Position numbers and translations under genes: made by a program. Shown one piece after another: positions 28,480 through 39,854 of a stretch of DNA of 42,382 bases. Each line of letters begins with the position of its first letter. Position 1 is the stretch's first letter. Source of the stretch: a bacterium (GTDB lineage Bacteria; Actinomycetota; Thermoleophilia; Solirubrobacterales; Solirubrobacteraceae); contig JAJPKQ010000006.1 in assembly GCA_021323635.1 (NCBI GenBank), forward strand, positions 1 to 42,382, given 5' to 3'. A model generated the notes under the pieces. That model saw nothing but the letters and a program-made list of their open reading frames with translations. It did no database searches and was not told where the DNA came from.

Positions 28480-29447
28480 CGGCCGCTGCGGCGGGCCGGG
28501 AGCGGCCAGCCGGTGGCGGTGGCCTGCTCTTCCCAGGCGCCGGGTCGACGCGGGTCCTCGAGTGCGTATGGCTGCTCGAGAATCCACGCCTCGTGTCGCA
28601 GGGCAAGCTCCGTGTGCAGCAGCGCCGCATCTGCGAACTCCTCCGGGTCGATTGCCTCGTCGACGTCCATCCAGACGCGGTGACCGATGCGTCGCGGCCG
28701 CACGGCCAGGACGAGGGCGCCGCTGACCTTCGCCACTCGTGCGCTGCCGTCGGCAAGCATCACCGGCTTGCCCAGGAACCGGGTCTCATGCCGTCCGGGC
28801 ATGTCAAAGTGAATGTGCACGACTCTGCCTTTTGTCAGCAGCTCGACCACGGCCTCGAAAGAGCCGCGCGCGGGGATCGCGCTGGCGCTGAACGTCGCAA
28901 GCTGCGTTCGCCAGTGCGCGAGGCGCCTGCCCCACTCGTCGCGGCTTGGCTCCTCAAAGAGCCAGGGATCGGCGACCACCGTGAGCGGGCTGCCAACCAT
29001 GTATCCGAGGCCCGGCATCAGCTGATATGGGCCCAAGTGCGCGGTGCTCAGCAGCACGCCTCGTCGCGAGGCCACAGCCCGTCGCAGGCGCTCGAGGGAC
29101 CGGCGATCGGCAGAGGGCAGCTGCCAGCGGCGCCGCAGCAGCGCCTCGCGCACGCCCTCCTCGATCAGGTGCAGACGGGCGAGCGGCTCGCACTCGCCGG
29201 CACGCGCCGTCTGGCCGACGATCGCCTGCATGCTTGCCCGTGCGCGCTGACGCGCCGCCGGCGAGCGGCGCCACGTGCGGGCACCCTTGATTTCCGCTCT
29301 GCGCAGCACAGCCACCGCCGGCATCCGCGCATCGAACGTCCTGGATACCCGCACCCGCAGTGGCGCAGAAGGCAGCGGCACAGCGCTAAGCGGCACAGGC
29401 GAGGGTGGCTGCACCTGGCGCTTGGGCAGCTGCGGGCGATCTGGCAT
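28476..29447 (-). CDS. Lysophospholipid/PIM-type acyltransferase (LpxL/HtrB superfamily)
   Basis: A 323-residue protein whose core matches the LpxL/HtrB and mycobacterial PatA-like acyltransferases: LLSTAHLGPYQLMPGL (catalytic histidine region, though the usual HX4-D/E acid is a Gln here), VADPWLFEEP, and HFDMPGRHETRFLGKPVML with GSARVAKVSGALVLAV. The first 41 residues are Pro/Ser rich, so ATG 29324 (MPAVAVLRRAE) may be the real start. It would acylate a glycolipid or sugar at the membrane. The next gene is a glycosyltransferase with a four-base overlap. It diverges from the 29609 gene across 161 bases. Confidence 0.8.
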   Translation of the reverse strand: MPDRPQLPKRQVQPPSPVPLSAVPLPSAPLRVRVSRTFDARMPAVAVLRRAEIKGARTWRRSPAARQRARASMQAIVGQTARAGECEPLARLHLIEEGVREALLRRRWQLPSADRRSLERLRRAVASRRGVLLSTAHLGPYQLMPGLGYMVGSPLTVVADPWLFEEPSRDEWGRRLAHWRTQLATFSASAIPARGSFEAVVELLTKGRVVHIHFDMPGRHETRFLGKPVMLADGSARVAKVSGALVLAVRPRRIGHRVWMDVDEAIDPEEFADAALLHTELALRHEAWILEQPYALEDPRRPGAWEEQATATGWPLPARRSGR

Positions 29448-29608
29448 CCGCAGAATCTTTGCACGAGAGCTCGATCACGCCCGGCGTGCGGAGCGGTTGC
29501 GCGACATCTCGTCGTGCGATTTTGTCGCGCACGGCGCCGTTGTCCGGCCTCGTCGGTGAATCAGCCCAAGCACTGCATCAGCGCCCGGGCAGGCTAGCGT
29601 GTCGCTCG

Positions 29609-30877
29609 ATGCGCATTCTTGTGATCTCCAATCTGTACCCGCCGATCTCGCGCGGTGGCTACGAGGTCGAGTGCTCCGCTGTCGTCGAGCGGCTTCGTCA
29701 GAGCCACGAGGTTCGGGTGCTCTGCTCCTCCTTCCAACGGGAGGAGGTGCCTGCGCTGCTCCGGGACGAGTCCCAGCGACGCGCCGAGAAGGACGTGGTG
29801 CGAGCGCTCGCCCTGCTCAGCCCCGACGCGCGCGGAGCTCTGCGCGCCCCCCTTGCGAGCATCGATGCGGTCCGCTTGGCCAGGCGGCTGATGGGTGAGC
29901 GACCTGACCTCGTCTATGTCTGGAACGGCAGCGACATACCTCAGGCGGCGATCCGCACGATCGCCGACACGGGCGCTCCTATTGCCTTCCGGGTTTGCGA
30001 GCACTGGTTCTCGCGCCTGTTTGCGCAGGATCAGTTCATGCGCGAGCTGATGCCCGCCGACCGCGGTGCGGCGCGCAGAGTCTGGTCGCTGCTCTGCCGT
30101 GCCGTGAACCGCCTGCCGTTCATGCAGCTCAAGCCGGCCGTGCCGATCAGGGCGGCGATCTCTTGGAACTCGGAGGCGATTCGCGCGATGTCGGGCTCAC
30201 CGCCGGTGATCGAGGCGGTGATGGAGCGGGTGGGGCACTCGGTGCCTCTGCACGGTGACCTCTACGCTGCGGTGCAGCGCTCGCCGGCGCCCGATCCCGA
30301 GATCCTCTTTCTGGGAAGGGTGACCGCCTACAAAGGCGTCTCGGTGGCGATTGAGGCGCTTGCGATTCTGCGCAGCCGGCTCGGCCTCGAGGGACGTCTG
30401 CGCGTTGTCGGCCCACTGGACTCCCACTACGCTCTGCAAATGCGCAGGCTCGCCGAGCAGCGGGGACTCTCAGCGGCCGTGAGCTTCGAGGGCCCGGCGG
30501 GCCCTGCCGAGATCGCCAGCGCATTTGCGCGCGCGGCCGCCCTGATCGTGCCCTCGCTCTGGCGGGAGCCATTTCCGCTCGTTACCATCGAGGGCGCTCT
30601 GGCAGGGGTGCCCGTCGTCGCCTCCGACGTCGGCGGGATCGCCGAGGGCCTGCAGGATCAGGAGCATGCCCTGCTGTTTCCGCCTGGAGATGCCGAGCGT
30701 GCAGCAGCAGCGCTCGCGCGCCTGATCCGGATGCCAGAGGAGACCGAGGCTCGCGTGCGGCGCGCGCGCGCACGTGCGGAGGATTTTCGCCTCGGCCCCT
30801 ACCTCGACGCTCAGGAACAGTTCGTGATTGACGCCCAAGCTGCGTTGCGGCGCGCTGCAACGAGCGCTCGTGCTTAA
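29609..30877 (+). CDS. GT4-family glycosyltransferase
   Basis: A 422-residue GT-B enzyme. MRILVISNLYPPISRGGYEVE gives a textbook GT4 N-terminus, so ATG 29609 is used although the frame is open to 29405 and no strong ribosome site is seen. The donor domain has EILFLGRVTAYKGVSVAIEAL, RVVGPLDS and PSLWREPFPLVTIEGALAGVPVVASDVGGIAE, with the EX7E motif. It heads the plus-strand run glycosyltransferase, BY-kinase, Wzy-like protein and so belongs with the assembly genes. Sugar specificity is unknown. Confidence 0.92.
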   Translation: MRILVISNLYPPISRGGYEVECSAVVERLRQSHEVRVLCSSFQREEVPALLRDESQRRAEKDVVRALALLSPDARGALRAPLASIDAVRLARRLMGERPDLVYVWNGSDIPQAAIRTIADTGAPIAFRVCEHWFSRLFAQDQFMRELMPADRGAARRVWSLLCRAVNRLPFMQLKPAVPIRAAISWNSEAIRAMSGSPPVIEAVMERVGHSVPLHGDLYAAVQRSPAPDPEILFLGRVTAYKGVSVAIEALAILRSRLGLEGRLRVVGPLDSHYALQMRRLAEQRGLSAAVSFEGPAGPAEIASAFARAAALIVPSLWREPFPLVTIEGALAGVPVVASDVGGIAEGLQDQEHALLFPPGDAERAAAALARLIRMPEETEARVRRARARAEDFRLGPYLDAQEQFVIDAQAALRRAATSARA

Positions 30878-32656: not shown

Positions 32657-34138
32657 ATGGCGGTGAGCAGCTGGGTTGCGCGTGCGGGCGAGGGCGGATC
32701 GATCATGCGGGCGCTCCGCGAGCAACTGGTCATCGCATCAGCGCTAGGGGTTGCGCTGCTGCTGATGGCAGCGCTTTTCGCAAAGCTCGGTCTGCTGGCG
32801 CTGCTCGTCCCCGTTGGCCTGGCGGCGGCCGCGTTCCTTCTGCAGCGTCCGTTGCTGACAGTCTTGCTGACCGTGACGCTGGTCGCCCTATGTGAGGGCC
32901 CGAGCTTCGGCCTGTTCACCTTTACAGCAAAGCTCTATGGACAGCTCTACCGAGATATCTCGAGGCTTGACGTGCTCGTCGGCATGGCGGTCGTGGCGGT
33001 GTTCCTCGATGTCCTCAGAAGACGAGAGCGGCTCTATGTGCCCAGGCCGCTGGCGCTGCCGCTCTCAATCCTGTTCTTGGCGATGATTGTGGCCGTAATC
33101 ACCGGGCAGGCTGCCGGTGAAAAGCTGAGGTTCGTGATCTTCTCTGAGCACATCCTCGCCTACCTTCTTCTGCTTCCAATCGCAGTCGCAAACCTTGAGA
33201 TCGATGAGGCGACGATCAAGAAGCTGCTGGTCGGCGTTGTCGCGTTCAGCGCACTCAAGGCGCTGCTCGGCCTAATCGAGATCGCGGGCCACTACGGGCA
33301 GGCGATTTACGGTACCGCGACCCTCACCTACTACGAACCGGCGGCCAACTGGCTGATCATGGTTACCATGTTCGGGCTGCTGGCGGCGCGCTCGAGCGGG
33401 ATGCGCCTGCCTCGCTGGACGGCTCCCGTATCCGCGCTGCTGCTGGCGTCGTTCGTGCTCTCATATCGACGCTCTTTTTGGATCGCCGGAGTGCTCGGCC
33501 TGGTGCTGGTGGTGATCGTCGCCGGCTCGCAAAGGGGCCGGCGCACGCTTCTGATCAGCGGGCTTCTGCTTGCCGGTGCAGTCTGGGCGGCAGGATCGAT
33601 CGCGGTCGAATCGCAGTCGCCGATCATCAGGCGCGTCGAGTCGCTCAACCCGAGTCGGCTGGAAAACAACGCACAAGACGAGTATCGGCTCGATGAAGAG
33701 GCGAACGTGATCGCGGAAATAGGCAAGAATCCAATCACCGGCATTGGGATCACAACCCCCTGGCACGCGACCGCGCAGCCGCTGGCGGTGGAACACGCCG
33801 AAGGGCGCCTTTACACGCACTTTGCGGCTCTCTGGTACTGGCTGAAGATGGGCATCCTCGGTCTCGTGGCGTACCTGGGCATTATCATTGGCAGCCTCGT
33901 GCTCGCTTGGCAGGCATGGCACCGCAGCACTGATGCGATGCTGCGCGCATTTGCGGTGGCGTCGCTGTGCGCGGTCGCAAGCCTCGCGGTGCTCGATGGA
34001 ACCGCCAGCTTCACCGGCGTGGATGCGCGCCTGACCGTGCTGCTCGCCTTCCAGCTCGGGCTGCTTGGACGTATGCTGCGGATCGGCGCGACCAGACCTG
34101 TCGCCTCCGCAGCCTTGGTGCCGCGATCAGGCGGCTAG
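32657..34138 (+). CDS. O-antigen ligase/polymerase family membrane protein (Wzy-like)
   Basis: A 493-residue protein with about 11-12 membrane helices, opening at ATG 32657 after a GGAGGCAGGAGG site. A long external loop lies before the last helices and carries the family region around GIGITTPWHATAQPLAVEHAEGRLYTHFAALWYWLKMGILGL, with the HNxxL-like part altered to HFAALWYWLK. It follows the BY-kinase gene by 37 bases and would polymerise or ligate repeat units outside the membrane. The stop codon shares the palindrome CTAG with the stop of the convergent hydrolase gene (34135-34138). Confidence 0.88.
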   Translation: MAVSSWVARAGEGGSIMRALREQLVIASALGVALLLMAALFAKLGLLALLVPVGLAAAAFLLQRPLLTVLLTVTLVALCEGPSFGLFTFTAKLYGQLYRDISRLDVLVGMAVVAVFLDVLRRRERLYVPRPLALPLSILFLAMIVAVITGQAAGEKLRFVIFSEHILAYLLLLPIAVANLEIDEATIKKLLVGVVAFSALKALLGLIEIAGHYGQAIYGTATLTYYEPAANWLIMVTMFGLLAARSSGMRLPRWTAPVSALLLASFVLSYRRSFWIAGVLGLVLVVIVAGSQRGRRTLLISGLLLAGAVWAAGSIAVESQSPIIRRVESLNPSRLENNAQDEYRLDEEANVIAEIGKNPITGIGITTPWHATAQPLAVEHAEGRLYTHFAALWYWLKMGILGLVAYLGIIIGSLVLAWQAWHRSTDAMLRAFAVASLCAVASLAVLDGTASFTGVDARLTVLLAFQLGLLGRMLRIGATRPVASAALVPRSGG

Positions 34139-36138
34139 GGGTTTTCGTTCAGCAGCGCGCTGGCGGTCGCGGTGTAAGCGCCCTTGGGCGCGCCGTTGTT
34201 CTGAACGATGCCGAAGTACTGCTCGCGTTCGTTTGAGACACCAGGTTCGGATTGGTCCTGGGCCTGGTAGAGGTAGATCGCGGCCAGTCGGCTGCCGTAG
34301 CGGGCGCGCATGCCGGCGACCACGCTGGAGAGCGTCGTCGCAGCTTCGGAATATGTCATGCAGCGGTTCCAGCCATAGTTGTCCGTCAGGCATCGCCCGT
34401 TGTCTGTCGCCAGGCCCCACTCGGTGACGTAGATCGGAATGGTGCTAGAGGCGCCATTTTCGCTGGTCTGCTGCACCAGACGATTCATGCGCGTTTCCCA
34501 TTCGGGCCCATAAGGGTGGATCGTCCATCCGGAGACGTAGCGGCCGAGATTTGGCACCGCCTTGAACATGTTGTCGACCCAGATCGAAGATCCGCTGTCT
34601 CCTTCGTCCGCCTGCGCCAGCAGGCCGACCCGCGGATTGGCAGCATGGATTGCTTCCGCTGCTTCCTTGAAGCGCAGCGCGTATTCCTGCGCGCGGCTGG
34701 CGACCGCTTCCGGCGAGTTGTTCGAGAACTGATATGCGTAGCTCGTCTCATTGCCGAACTCGATGTCTGTGATCGCGGCGCTTTCTGGCAGCGACTTGCC
34801 CTTCCAGAAGGTTCCCCCCGGACCATACGCCGCTGCCCAGGTGGCGAGATTCCGCGCCTGAGCAGCTGTAGGTATGCGGCCTTCAAAGCCGGCGAGCGGC
34901 AGGATCTTGATGCCGGCGCTGGCGTAGCTTTCGACCCAGGGAGCAAGCTGAGAGGCGGGAGCTTCGATTTCGGCTTCCATGCGCACAGTGCGCGCTCCAA
35001 GGTCCTTTATCAATGTTGTCTCGTGGCTTTCGAGACTCTCGGGAATCAAGCCGATTTCAAGATGGCCGCTGGCGCGCGGCGCTTCAAATGTCTGGCCGCT
35101 TTCGGTGCTCACAGGCACTTCGGTCGGGGGCGCTTCCGAGGACGAGGAGGTAGAAGCGCTGGTCGTTGTAGTGGTGGTCGAGGAGGAGGAGGAGGCTTCG
35201 GTGACCGCCTTTTCTTCTGTGGGAGTGGGTGTCGGCTTGGCTTCCTCGTTGGGTTCGCCCGGCGCCGATTCCGGGTAGCTGATCTGAACAGGCGATGACC
35301 AGGCACTGCCTTCGACTGCCGTGCGGATGCTGTAGGTGACGGTCGCGCCGGCTATCGGCGCCGGCGTGAGCGAGGTGCCACCGACCTCCAGGTAGGTTAC
35401 CGCACCGCTCGGCAGCGTTGCCGCGAGCACGTAGGTCTGAACACCGGCCACCGCCGTCCAATGCAGCGTGTATCCGCTCACCGTCAGAAGCGGCGCGGCC
35501 TGCGGGTTGGGCGCGACTGCTTCGGGCTGGTAGGAGATGCTCACCTGGTTGGACCACCGTGCGTTGCGAGCGGCAGCCCGCACGCGATAGCTTGCAACAT
35601 GGCCGGGCAGCGGCGGAGGCGTGAAGCTCAGCCCATCCACGAGCTCGAAGCTTGCGCTCTGAGAACCGATCATGCGCTCGACGATGTAGGAGCGCGCTCC
35701 TCCGACCGCTGACCAGTGCAGGCTGTCGCCGCTGACGTTGAGTGAGGGCGCGCGCCTCGCGCTGGAGCTATTGGCAGCACGGTCGGAGCGGCGCACCGTC
35801 CTGTTCAGTGCGTGCTGCGCACGGGCGTCGCTGCTGCCCGCACGTTGAAGCCTGCGCCGAAATGTATGGCATGGCACCTTGTGCGCGCTCTTGCAGTCGC
35901 GGTAGGCGATTGCGGCTCTGACCAGGGCGCGATCGGCCTCCCGGGCCCGATGCGCTGCCGCCCGCACGACAAGCAGGCTGGAAGGGAAGGGGCTGCTCTT
36001 GCCTGCCGCGGCGGTGACCGGGCCGCTGGCGATCAGCAGGAGGGCGGCCGCCGGGAGCGCAAGCGCCCTGGCAGTGCGCCTCCGACCGCTTGATCGGCCA
36101 AATGCCCCGGTTGAGATACGTGTCCGCGAGATCCGCAT
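34135..36138 (-). CDS. Secreted Fn3-containing glycoside hydrolase (GH39/GH5-like)
   Basis: A 667-residue exported protein: signal sequence (about 24-44), a helical Cys-containing segment, two Fn3-like repeats (about 130-205 and 212-290), a Thr/Ser linker (about 315-335), then a TIM-barrel hydrolase (about 355-665). Predicted catalytic residues are E464 in IEFGNE (acid/base) and E573 in YVTEWGLA (nucleophile), as in clan GH-A. Like the 7321 product it should cut a polysaccharide outside the cell. ATG 36138 lies only a few bases after a c-di-GMP-I riboswitch candidate, with no separate ribosome-binding site. Its stop overlaps the Wzy-like stop. Confidence 0.88.
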   Translation of the reverse strand: MRISRTRISTGAFGRSSGRRRTARALALPAAALLLIASGPVTAAAGKSSPFPSSLLVVRAAAHRAREADRALVRAAIAYRDCKSAHKVPCHTFRRRLQRAGSSDARAQHALNRTVRRSDRAANSSSARRAPSLNVSGDSLHWSAVGGARSYIVERMIGSQSASFELVDGLSFTPPPLPGHVASYRVRAAARNARWSNQVSISYQPEAVAPNPQAAPLLTVSGYTLHWTAVAGVQTYVLAATLPSGAVTYLEVGGTSLTPAPIAGATVTYSIRTAVEGSAWSSPVQISYPESAPGEPNEEAKPTPTPTEEKAVTEASSSSSTTTTTTSASTSSSSEAPPTEVPVSTESGQTFEAPRASGHLEIGLIPESLESHETTLIKDLGARTVRMEAEIEAPASQLAPWVESYASAGIKILPLAGFEGRIPTAAQARNLATWAAAYGPGGTFWKGKSLPESAAITDIEFGNETSYAYQFSNNSPEAVASRAQEYALRFKEAAEAIHAANPRVGLLAQADEGDSGSSIWVDNMFKAVPNLGRYVSGWTIHPYGPEWETRMNRLVQQTSENGASSTIPIYVTEWGLATDNGRCLTDNYGWNRCMTYSEAATTLSSVVAGMRARYGSRLAAIYLYQAQDQSEPGVSNEREQYFGIVQNNGAPKGAYTATASALLNENP

Positions 36139-36140
36139 TG

Positions 36141-36213
36141 GTGGGTAGCCGGGCTGTCTCCTGGAGACCCCTTGCTTTGCGAGCCCGCCTTACGGCGGGG
36201 GTGCCTTTTTCCG
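36141..36213 (-). promoter_or_regulatory. Candidate c-di-GMP-I (GEMM-I) riboswitch
   Basis: Read on the minus strand, the segment shows the GEMM-I order: GGCACCCC, a CCGCC/GGCGG hairpin closed by a GTAA (GNRA) tetraloop, the joining stretch CTCGCAAAGC, a GGGGTCTC...GAGAC stem, and closing AGCCCGGCTACC. The GNRA loop and the GCAAAGC joiner are the most conserved parts of the family. It directly precedes the start of the secreted hydrolase gene (36138). I could not resolve a clean P1 helix by eye. Confidence 0.7.
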
Positions 36214-36297
36214 ACCGGAAGGACCGCTCCTCCTGTCCGCCAAGCAGCAATCCGTCCTGCACCACTGCGGTCGGCCGCGCGCAGCGCAAGCTTGATT

Positions 36298-36341
36298 GCG
36301 CAGCTCAAGCTCCGGACAAACGTCCAGAGCTTGAGCTGCGC
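36298..36341. terminator. 44-base long inverted repeat, probable terminator
   Basis: Fifteen bases (36298-36312) pair perfectly with 36327-36341; a C-A mismatch and four more pairs lead to a four-base loop. It lies about 70 bases after the stop of the minus-strand glycosyltransferase gene and about 85 bases ahead of the riboswitch. No T-run follows on either strand. A terminator for the 36411 gene is likely, which would make the hydrolase a separate riboswitch-controlled unit. Confidence 0.55.
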
Positions 36342-37565: not shown

Positions 37566-39854
37566 ATGCGCTATGAGAGCACAACGACCATGCTGCGCCA
37601 GCGAGCGCTGGCGCTTTGCGTATGCTTTTGGGCGTGCGGCATCGCTCCGGCGGCGGCGTCTGCGCGTGCGCTGCAACCCGCTCTGAGGGCGCGCGCCTGC
37701 CGCGGTGGCTGCTCGCAGCCGCGGCCTCAGTTGCAAGATCGGCCGGCGTTGCCGACGAGCGCGGTGCACGGACGTGCACACCTGCGCCTGCAGTTGCGCA
37801 AGCTCGCGCTGCGCGATGGCCAGAGCATGCTCGAAGGCCGGATGGCGCTCACCGAGCCGGCGAGCGTGCCGTTGCGTGCAGCGACGGCGCGCGTGCTCTG
37901 GACGCGTGGTGGCGCGGCGGCCGTAGAACGCCTTGGGCTCGTGCGTATTCCCCCGCCCAAGCGCGGCGGCTCAGCATCGGTCCGGCTCTTGATTCACCTT
38001 CCCGCTGCCGCGCCGCCAGGGCGACATGTTGTCTTCATCTGCGTCACCATCCTCGACGGCGCGCGGCGACGTCGTCGGATGCTCGGCTGCATCCGCGCCG
38101 GCATCGTCCGACTCCACGCGGGCGTGCGCGCAGGCGGAGCGCAGGCTGCGATCTCGGGCGCCTCGGCGCCGCCGTCCGCGCAGGAGCGCCTGCCGGCCCC
38201 CTATGCGGCCGGCGCCTTCGCGGCCCGCCCGTCGGAGCCCTTCGCTGCAGAAAGCTTCGAAGCGCCCGGCGGCGCTGCCACGGCAGCTGGTCCCCCTGAG
38301 CCCATCATCACCGCCGCTCCACACGGGATCGTGGTTGAAGGGCCAGCAACACTCGAATTCCGCTCAGAACAGGCTGGGGACATGCTCGAATGCAGTCTCG
38401 ACGAAGGTGCCTTCGCGCCGTGCAGCTCTCCGTTCGTCACGCCGCCCCTCCGGGCGGGCCGCCACAGCTTCAGCGTGCGGGCGGTGAGCCCGACAGGGGC
38501 TGGAGGCCAACCGCCGGCGCGGGCTCAATGGGTGGACATACCAAGGCGTGTTGATCTCTGTGGCCGCATCGAACGAAGCGAGGTCCTGGGACCCGCGGAC
38601 GCTGGCGAATACGTGATCGAACACTGCCAGGCGACCATCTCGCGCGGAGCCCAAGTCACGCTTGAGCCCGGATGTATCATCCGAGCGCTCGCCGGCGGCC
38701 TCGAGGTCGAAGGCGTGTTGATCGCCGCAGGCTCAGCATCCCAGCCGGTCCTGCTCTCCTCGCTGCTGGAAGTGGAATCTGCGGAGGGCAGCGCGCCCTC
38801 GTCGGGTGACTGGCAGGGGATCGAGCTTGCGCCCGGCGCAAGCGCCGATCTCCACGCAGTCACGATCAAATACGCCGCCAAGGCGCTCGCCGTCGCAGCC
38901 GGCGACGCAGTCACGATTGACGGCTCGATCCTCGATTCGACCGTGGGAATATCGGCGGAAACCTGGGTTGATGCCACCGGCGTCGAATGGGGGAGCACGA
39001 GCGGCCCGGCGCCCGCAGGGAGCGGTCCGGCGATCGAAGGAGACGGGCCGATGGTGGTGCCGTGGGTCGGCTGGACGCCGGCTCGGCGCCCGGCGCTCGT
39101 TCCAGAGCCGGAGCCGGCGCAAGCATGCGGCGCAAGCAGTGAAGGCATCCTGTTTGTCGGGGCTCGCGGCTCTGGCGAACCACCGCAGGCTGTCGAGGGG
39201 TCCGGAGCTGCCGGCGAAGAAGGATTGGGCGGACCGGTCGCTGCGGCCCTGCGGGGATTCAGGAGCAGGATGAGCCAATTGGGCTCGGCCGATGCAGTCA
39301 GCGCGCTTGGGCTCCGCTATCCGGCGCTGGCCCTGCCCGAAGGCGTTCCAGTTGACGAGCTGATCAGCGGCGCGTACGGGGAGCTTGAAGGCAGCTATTG
39401 GCAGGGAGCGGCGAACCTTGCAGGGCTGATACAAGAAGTCTCAGCTCGTTGCCCGCATCTGCAGATCGTGCTTGCCGGCTACTCTCAGGGCGCGCTTGCC
39501 ATCCATCTCGCGCTCACAGAGCTGCTTGACTCGGCTGAACTCTCTGACATCGCAGCGGTGATCCTGATCGCCGACCCCGCCCATCGCAGCGCTGACCCAA
39601 GCGTCCTGCGCGAGGGCGGCGCGGCCAGCGCGGGCGAAGGTATCTACGCCCAAGCGTTTGCTGACACAAGCGAGGCCGTGCACTCTCTGCCGACGTCGCT
39701 TGCCGGGCATGCGATCGAACTCTGCCATGAGGGCGACATCATCTGCGCGCCTGGGGTTGGCGCAGACTTGGCCCGCCACGAGGAATACAGCGAAGCTGAA
39801 GCAGACGCGGTCGGCGCTTGGGCGGCCGAACATCTGACCCGGACGAGCGGCTGA
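37566..39854 (+). CDS. Secreted beta-helix/Ig-like protein with C-terminal cutinase domain
   Basis: A 762-residue exported protein; ATG 37566 follows GAGGAG at a spacing of seven. After the signal peptide (RALALCVCFWACGIAPAAASA) comes a Cys/Arg-rich segment. An Ig-like repeat follows (about 255-320, MLECSLDEGAFAPCSSPF, LRAGRHSFSVRAV). A short parallel-beta-helix-like stretch (about 355-480) precedes a full cutinase fold (about 520-760). The cutinase has VGARGSGEP, the nucleophile S640 in GYSQGA, the aspartate in HEGDIICAPG and the histidine in LARHEEYS. Cutinases hydrolyse esters such as acylated glycans or lipid polyesters. The natural substrate may be acyl groups on the locus polymer, which is inference. 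Confidence 0.88.
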   Translation: MRYESTTTMLRQRALALCVCFWACGIAPAAASARALQPALRARACRGGCSQPRPQLQDRPALPTSAVHGRAHLRLQLRKLALRDGQSMLEGRMALTEPASVPLRAATARVLWTRGGAAAVERLGLVRIPPPKRGGSASVRLLIHLPAAAPPGRHVVFICVTILDGARRRRRMLGCIRAGIVRLHAGVRAGGAQAAISGASAPPSAQERLPAPYAAGAFAARPSEPFAAESFEAPGGAATAAGPPEPIITAAPHGIVVEGPATLEFRSEQAGDMLECSLDEGAFAPCSSPFVTPPLRAGRHSFSVRAVSPTGAGGQPPARAQWVDIPRRVDLCGRIERSEVLGPADAGEYVIEHCQATISRGAQVTLEPGCIIRALAGGLEVEGVLIAAGSASQPVLLSSLLEVESAEGSAPSSGDWQGIELAPGASADLHAVTIKYAAKALAVAAGDAVTIDGSILDSTVGISAETWVDATGVEWGSTSGPAPAGSGPAIEGDGPMVVPWVGWTPARRPALVPEPEPAQACGASSEGILFVGARGSGEPPQAVEGSGAAGEEGLGGPVAAALRGFRSRMSQLGSADAVSALGLRYPALALPEGVPVDELISGAYGELEGSYWQGAANLAGLIQEVSARCPHLQIVLAGYSQGALAIHLALTELLDSAELSDIAAVILIADPAHRSADPSVLREGGAASAGEGIYAQAFADTSEAVHSLPTSLAGHAIELCHEGDIICAPGVGADLARHEEYSEAEADAVGAWAAEHLTRTSG

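What the first reader, a model, noticed from the sequence alone, without database searches (positions are those of the whole stretch)
36138..36213. c-di-GMP-I riboswitch abutting the start codon of a matrix glycoside hydrolase
On the minus strand the conserved GEMM-I elements occur in order, including a GNRA (GTAA) P2 loop and the CGCAAAGC joining segment, immediately before the 36138 start. The gene encodes a secreted clan GH-A hydrolase inside a Wzx/Wzy locus. Direct c-di-GMP control of a polymer-cutting enzyme would link biofilm signalling to trimming or release. The aptamer ends within about five bases of the ATG and no separate Shine-Dalgarno is visible, so control may be at translation start.
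Basis: partly seen in the sequence, partly recalled or inferred. Interest (0 to 1): 0.78.

Follow-up and report, generated by a model that had tools for sequence, protein, structure and literature searches.

The report
c-di-GMP riboswitch before exopolysaccharide hydrolase gene
A soil-type actinobacterium (Solirubrobacterales) carries a real RNA sensor for the biofilm signal c-di-GMP directly in front of the gene for a secreted sugar-polymer-cutting enzyme beside its exopolysaccharide genes; the sensor class is known, the target is one I did not find reported, and related genomes suggest that the signal switches the enzyme off.

Summary
Window 36214-36140 (-) matches Rfam c-di-GMP-I (RF01051: 53.1 bits, cutoff 35) and c-di-GMP-I-GGC (RF03167: 60.3, cutoff 59), one base before the ATG of a 667-aa secreted protein. 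The GGC label is not literal: that model has G at the base equivalent to Vc2 A47; this copy and its relatives have A. The contact bases are G20/A47/C92, as in ordinary c-di-GMP-I. The genome has five copies, 32 GGDEF and 8 EAL domains. The protein's C-terminal domain has a confident clan GH-A model closest to a GH39 enzyme and PslG. The gene abuts a Wzy/Wzc/Wzx locus, and aptamer + hydrolase lie near Wzc homologues in eight related genomes. There the Shine-Dalgarno lies in the 3' strand of aptamer helix P1, so ligand-stabilised P1 should hide it: a predicted translational OFF switch. The window copy has lost that Shine-Dalgarno; its P1 ends one base from the ATG. Aptamers before pilins and other secreted proteins have distal Shine-Dalgarnos that tend to open when the aptamer folds (ON-like in modelling). 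Binding, direction and substrate are untested. New member of a known kind.

The parts
36140..36214 (-). c-di-GMP-I riboswitch aptamer (P1, P2, P3)
   Evidence: RF03167 60.3 bits; RF01051 53.1 bits
36211..36216 (-). P1 5' strand GGUCGG (C at 36213 bulged)
   Evidence: model alignment and constrained fold
36140..36144 (-). P1 3' strand CCACC, ending one base before the ATG; occupies the place where relatives carry the Shine-Dalgarno
36205..36205 (-). G equivalent to Vc2 G20 (ligand contact)
   Evidence: contact role from PMC4744006
36178..36178 (-). A equivalent to Vc2 A47 (ligand contact; G in the RF03167 consensus)
   Evidence: PMC4744006
36145..36145 (-). C equivalent to Vc2 C92 (ligand contact)
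   Evidence: PMC4744006
36184..36199 (-). P2 outer helix with GUAA (GNRA) loop at 36193-36190
36147..36176 (-). P3 helix and loop
36209..36220 (-). alternative hairpin UUCC-GGUC-GGAA, exclusive with P1, minimum-energy form without ligand
34135..36138 (-). regulated gene: 667-aa secreted protein, two repeated modules, Ser/Thr-rich linker, C-terminal GH-A-type catalytic domain (about 34138-35073)
32657..34138 (+). Wzy_C (O-antigen ligase family) gene converging on the hydrolase gene
   Evidence: PF04932
30886..32619 (+). Wzc-like gene with ParA-type ATPase domain
   Evidence: PF10609; conserved near the hydrolase
29405..30877 (+). glycosyltransferase (group 1)
   Evidence: PF00534
25806..27305 (+). 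Wzx-type flippase
   Evidence: PF01943

Best explanation
A c-di-GMP-I riboswitch in the 5' leader of an exopolysaccharide-locus glycoside hydrolase. c-di-GMP binds at the P1-P2-P3 junction and stabilises P1. In related genomes the 3' strand of P1 contains the Shine-Dalgarno, so binding would block ribosome entry and the hydrolase would be made when c-di-GMP falls (trimming, release or dispersal). In the window copy P1 (GGUCGG/CCACC) ends one base from the ATG and a Shine-Dalgarno is lacking, so the same occlusion is predicted on top of low basal translation. Shown here: aptamer, contact bases, conserved pairing with the hydrolase gene, enzyme fold, locus. Inferred: ligand binding, OFF direction, substrate.
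For: Covariance-model matches above both cutoffs. G20/A47/C92 present; A47 and C92 in 42 of 42 and G20 in 41 of 42 aligned relatives. P1 pair 3-77 seen as C-G, U-A, U-G and G-C. 32 GGDEF, 8 EAL, 1 PilZ matches in the genome. Aptamer directly before the hydrolase family in ten genomes of the genus and three more distant ones including Svornostia abyssi J379. Shine-Dalgarno in P1 there; mean pairing run 3.65 against 1.94 for random upstream stretches. P1 of Vc2 is described as formed in the presence of c-di-GMP. Fold closest to a GH39 enzyme and PslG; Wzc/Wzy/Wzx homologues nearby in eight relatives. Precedent: ZmpI of C. difficile, a surface-trimming enzyme under a class I OFF switch.
Against: No binding data. 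The window copy lacks the Shine-Dalgarno that the mechanism hides in relatives. Thermodynamic modelling shows no clear loss of accessibility in the P1-embedded group (mean -0.02), and free duplex energies of the flanks are mostly not significant. The copies are related, so they are not independent tests. Vc1 before gbpA is an ON switch. Some GH-domain homologues lack an aptamer.
Confidence: 0.6

Rival explanations
1. Same riboswitch and ligand, but an ON switch: aptamer folding frees the ribosome site, so the hydrolase is made at high c-di-GMP, for example to help polymer export or matrix remodelling, as PslG is made together with Psl.
For: Vc1 is an ON switch for gbpA; PslG is co-transcribed with the psl genes; in the modelling several P1-embedded copies show small rises.
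Against: The Shine-Dalgarno of relatives is part of P1, which ligand is expected to stabilise; for the window copy modelled ribosome-site accessibility falls from 0.50 to 0.35.
Confidence: 0.22
2. The window copy is decaying: the aptamer still folds and binds, but with the Shine-Dalgarno gone it no longer usefully controls the gene (or the draft assembly is wrong at this spot).
For: Shine-Dalgarno and spacer absent in CUACCCACCAATG while relatives have CUACCGAAGGAG-N-ATG; the genome is a draft in 46 contigs.
Against: All contact bases and all three helices are intact, P1 is paired by different bases than in relatives, and the 667-aa frame is open.
Confidence: 0.25
3. A riboswitch of the same architecture for another ligand (cGAMP, or the unknown ligand of a GGC variant).
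For: The best-scoring Rfam model is c-di-GMP-I-GGC. Two relatives carry A at the G20 position, a change known to allow cGAMP binding.
Against: The window copy has G at the G20 position and A at the A47 position; all 27 best RF03167 matches in the class also have G and A there, so the higher score of that model does not rest on its diagnostic base.
Confidence: 0.05

Closest known systems
c-di-GMP-I (GEMM-I) riboswitches, Rfam RF01051 (Vc2, Vc1, Cd1)
   Same: Covariance-model match, three-helix layout, GNRA P2 loop, G20/A47/C92 contact bases, position in a 5' leader
   Different: Lies one base from the ATG; relatives carry the Shine-Dalgarno in P1; target is a GH-A hydrolase of a polysaccharide locus
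c-di-GMP-I-GGC variant, Rfam RF03167
   Same: Highest-scoring model for this copy and many Thermoleophilia copies
   Different: The base at model position 37 is A, not the G of the model consensus
C. difficile ZmpI (PPEP-1) class I OFF riboswitch with adhesins under class II ON riboswitches
   Same: A surface-trimming enzyme predicted to be off at high c-di-GMP, with surface proteins on
   Different: Protease and adhesins there, glycoside hydrolase and pilins/secreted proteins here; attenuation at transcription is ruled out here upstream of the gene; opposite control is only predicted
Pseudomonas aeruginosa PslG
   Same: GH-A/GH39-like fold, gene beside a polysaccharide locus
   Different: 16-17% identity in the structural alignment, extra N-terminal modules, own riboswitch, convergent rather than co-transcribed

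Membership tests
c-di-GMP-I riboswitch (RF01051) | covariance-model score above the gathering cutoff | tested here: met
   53.1 bits, cutoff 35
c-di-GMP-I riboswitch (RF01051) | contact bases G20, A47, C92 | tested here: met
   G 36205, A 36178, C 36145 (roles from PMC4744006)
c-di-GMP-I riboswitch (RF01051) | binds c-di-GMP | not testable with these tools
   needs in-line probing or SHAPE
c-di-GMP-I riboswitch (RF01051) | organism makes c-di-GMP | tested here: met
   32 GGDEF and 8 EAL matches; enzyme activity not tested
c-di-GMP-I-GGC (RF03167) | covariance-model score above the gathering cutoff | tested here: met
   60.3 bits, cutoff 59
c-di-GMP-I-GGC (RF03167) | G at the A47 position (read from the printed model consensus) | tested here: not met
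   A in the window copy and in all aligned relatives
cGAMP riboswitch (GEMM-Ib) | A at the G20 position | tested here: not met
   G at 36205
Glycoside hydrolase clan GH-A | TIM-barrel fold with two catalytic glutamates | tested here: met
   Z 24.1 to 5jvk and 22.5 to PslG; invariant E464 and E573 aligned with PslG; catalysis not tested
GH39 / PslG family | sequence membership of the family | tested here: inconclusive
   profile matches PslG at E 1.5e-10 and GH39 xylosidases weakly, but no Pfam family reaches its cutoff for the window protein

The most novel reading that the evidence does not exclude
A reciprocal c-di-GMP riboswitch regulon in Thermoleophilia: class I aptamers switch exopolysaccharide hydrolases off (Shine-Dalgarno built into P1) and switch type IV pilins and other secreted surface proteins on (Shine-Dalgarno paired with aptamer strands when unbound), so one signal sets matrix building against matrix cutting through RNA alone.
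Probability: 0.4. Interest if true: 0.6.

Novelty: new member of a known kind. Interest (0 to 1): 0.45.

Why it matters
If true, c-di-GMP would control the cutting of a matrix polymer directly at the mRNA of a PslG-like enzyme, in a little-studied actinobacterial class with many predicted cyclases. A named strain with a chromosome record (Svornostia abyssi J379) carries the same aptamer before a related hydrolase, so the link can be tested. It also cautions that the RF03167 label is assigned to aptamers that lack its diagnostic base.

Tried and rejected
Energy folding of the leader: no signal above shuffles. Free duplex energy of the two P1 flanks: significant for few copies in GC-rich DNA; replaced by a run-length test next to the P1 core. 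Thermodynamic ON/OFF modelling: not decisive for P1-embedded copies. Alternative start codons: none common before the signal peptide's hydrophobic core. Transcription attenuation ahead of the gene: no room between aptamer and ATG; the 20-bp hairpin lies upstream of the aptamer. phmmer of the single protein against PDB and Pfam scan: nothing at threshold; an alignment profile was needed. The describing papers for the GGC variant are not held. Literature search for c-di-GMP riboswitch with glycoside hydrolase and exopolysaccharide: 0 papers in this library, which is not proof of absence. The first genome-contig query was too diverse. Some GH-domain homologues have no aptamer above the cutoff (L149, L155-L158).

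Full report
Observation. cmscan of the window gives two RNA matches: a tRNA and, at 36214-36140 (-), c-di-GMP-I-GGC (RF03167) with 60.3 bits, cutoff 59, E 6.4e-12. RF01051 searched in the same genome gives 53.1 bits at 36215-36141, cutoff 35. Fourteen control genomes give none. The genome (2.6 Mb, 46 contigs) has five copies. The aptamer's last base is 36140; the ATG is 36138-36136.

Which subtype. The printed RF03167 consensus has CGCGAAGC; the window has CGCAAAGC. The differing base is the one equivalent to Vc2 A47 by my alignment. G20, A47 and C92 are named as the c-di-GMP contacts of Vc2 in PMC4744006. Among 42 aptamers that align in register, position 37 is A in all, position 10 is G in 41, position 75 is C in all. 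Twenty-seven of the best class-wide RF03167 matches also all have G and A. I therefore treat the element as an ordinary c-di-GMP-I aptamer. That 'GGC' refers to these three positions is my reading; the describing papers are not held.

Reality of the RNA. P1 pair 3-77 occurs as C-G, U-A, U-G and G-C; P2 and P3 keep pairing through changes at several positions. RF03167 matches occur in 24 of 41 genomes (the window's own and 40 relatives) and in 119 of 299 genomes of the class. Plain energy folding is uninformative.

Organism. Named relatives found through the hydrolase are mainly Solirubrobacterales MAGs, plus Svornostia abyssi J379; the order is inferred from these. The genome has 32 GGDEF, 8 EAL and 1 PilZ domain matches, so c-di-GMP signalling is very probably present.

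The gene. ORF 36138-34135 (-) encodes 667 aa with a signal peptide (by eye), two repeated modules, a Ser/Thr-rich linker and a catalytic domain. No Pfam family reaches its cutoff. A profile of 14 relatives matches PslG at E 1.5e-10 and 5jvk, described as a GH39 enzyme, at 3.1e-10. The AlphaFold model (pLDDT 94.5, pTM 0.92) matches 5jvk (Z 24.1, rmsd 3.1, 262 aligned) and PslG (Z 22.5, rmsd 3.7, 275 aligned) best, with many GH-A enzymes just below. The invariant glutamates of GNE and TEWG align with glutamates of PslG. Clan GH-A is supported; the exact family and the substrate are open.

The locus. A Wzx-type flippase, a glycosyltransferase, a Wzc-like ATPase and a Wzy_C protein precede it on the + strand; the Wzy gene and the hydrolase gene converge and overlap by four bases. 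In eight other genomes with aptamer + hydrolase, Wzc homologues lie within the fetched few kilobases, often with Wzy, Wzx or the glycosyltransferase. The association with a polysaccharide locus is conserved.

Aptamer-hydrolase pairing. In the genus, members of the hydrolase family follow an aptamer in G001, G002, G003 (cut by the contig end), G004, G006, G008, G011, G014, G017 and G019. In three further genomes (L151, L152, and L153 of S. abyssi) the same holds. The N-terminal modules often stay while the catalytic domain differs among several GH-A-like types. Some GH-domain homologues lack the aptamer.

Expression platform. In these relatives the leader reads CUACCGAAGGAG-N-ATG or a close variant: the Shine-Dalgarno GGAG directly follows and partly forms the 3' strand of P1. 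The five bases 5' of the P1 core pair with it over a mean run of 3.65 against 1.94 for random upstream stretches (17 copies, some before other genes); the copies are related, so these are not independent events. P1 of Vc2 is described as formed in the presence of c-di-GMP. Ligand binding should therefore hide the Shine-Dalgarno (inference). In aptamers before pilins and other secreted proteins the Shine-Dalgarno lies further down and is complementary to P1 or P3 3' strands in several copies (by eye). Modelled accessibility of the ribosome site rises on aptamer folding there (mean +0.09) but not in the P1-embedded group (mean -0.02; one-sided P 0.006 on rounded values). This is suggestive only.

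The window copy. It reads CUACCCACCAATG: Shine-Dalgarno and spacer are missing. P1 is still paired, as GGUCGG/CCACC with a bulged C, and ends one base before the ATG. Without ligand a UUCC-GGUC-GGAA hairpin is the minimum-energy alternative; ribosome-site accessibility falls from 0.50 to 0.35 in the folded aptamer. Either translation starts without a Shine-Dalgarno and P1 blocks it, or the copy is decaying, or the draft assembly errs here. I cannot separate these.

Known parallels. C. difficile ZmpI, which releases adhesins from the surface, is under a class I switch and repressed by c-di-GMP, while its targets are under class II ON switches (PMC6366702). V. cholerae Vc1 is an ON switch for gbpA (PMC4744006). 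PslG is co-transcribed with the psl genes and its loss alters biofilm development (PMC9075953). No paper in the searched library holds the three terms c-di-GMP riboswitch, glycoside hydrolase and exopolysaccharide together.

Verdict. Real, canonical c-di-GMP-I riboswitch; a new member of a known kind, with a target and a conserved P1-embedded Shine-Dalgarno that are of moderate interest. My estimates: aptamer real about 0.97; ligand c-di-GMP about 0.9; OFF direction about 0.6.

Noticed in passing
L151:3436-3510 and L162 (near position 1501): Two relatives have A at the G20 position (AAGAGC, CAGAGC), the change linked with cGAMP binding, in otherwise similar aptamers; one stands before the same kind of hydrolase.
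   Followed up: partly
window 36298-36341 (-): A 20-bp hairpin (-43 kcal/mol, z -9.3) without a T run between the upstream gene and the aptamer, probably the end of the upstream transcript; the pair of exact arm matches is at this site, with one further exact arm match elsewhere in the genome.
   Followed up: partly
G000 C19:17215, C33:34689, C24:67604, C30:129631 (L011-L014): The other four aptamers of this genome precede a proline-rich 173-aa protein, a camelysin/TasA-type protein, a long secreted protein and a collagen-repeat protein; the C24 copy lies 160 bp behind a GGDEF domain.
   Followed up: partly
related loci such as L079, L084, L095, L103: Aptamers of the same family precede pilin-like proteins with N-terminal methylation motifs.
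   Followed up: partly
L085, L090, L098, L108, L115, L116 and the window hydrolase: Riboswitch-linked hydrolases share N-terminal modules in many cases but carry different GH-A-like catalytic domains, as if the catalytic part were swapped under one control element.
   Followed up: no
window 37566-39854 (+): A 762-aa protein with a C-terminal cutinase domain next to the locus.
   Followed up: no
L151 (record CAMCUD010000001.1): A contig titled Bifidobacterium breve carries a hydrolase and aptamer closest to Solirubrobacterales; the record title looks wrong.
   Followed up: no
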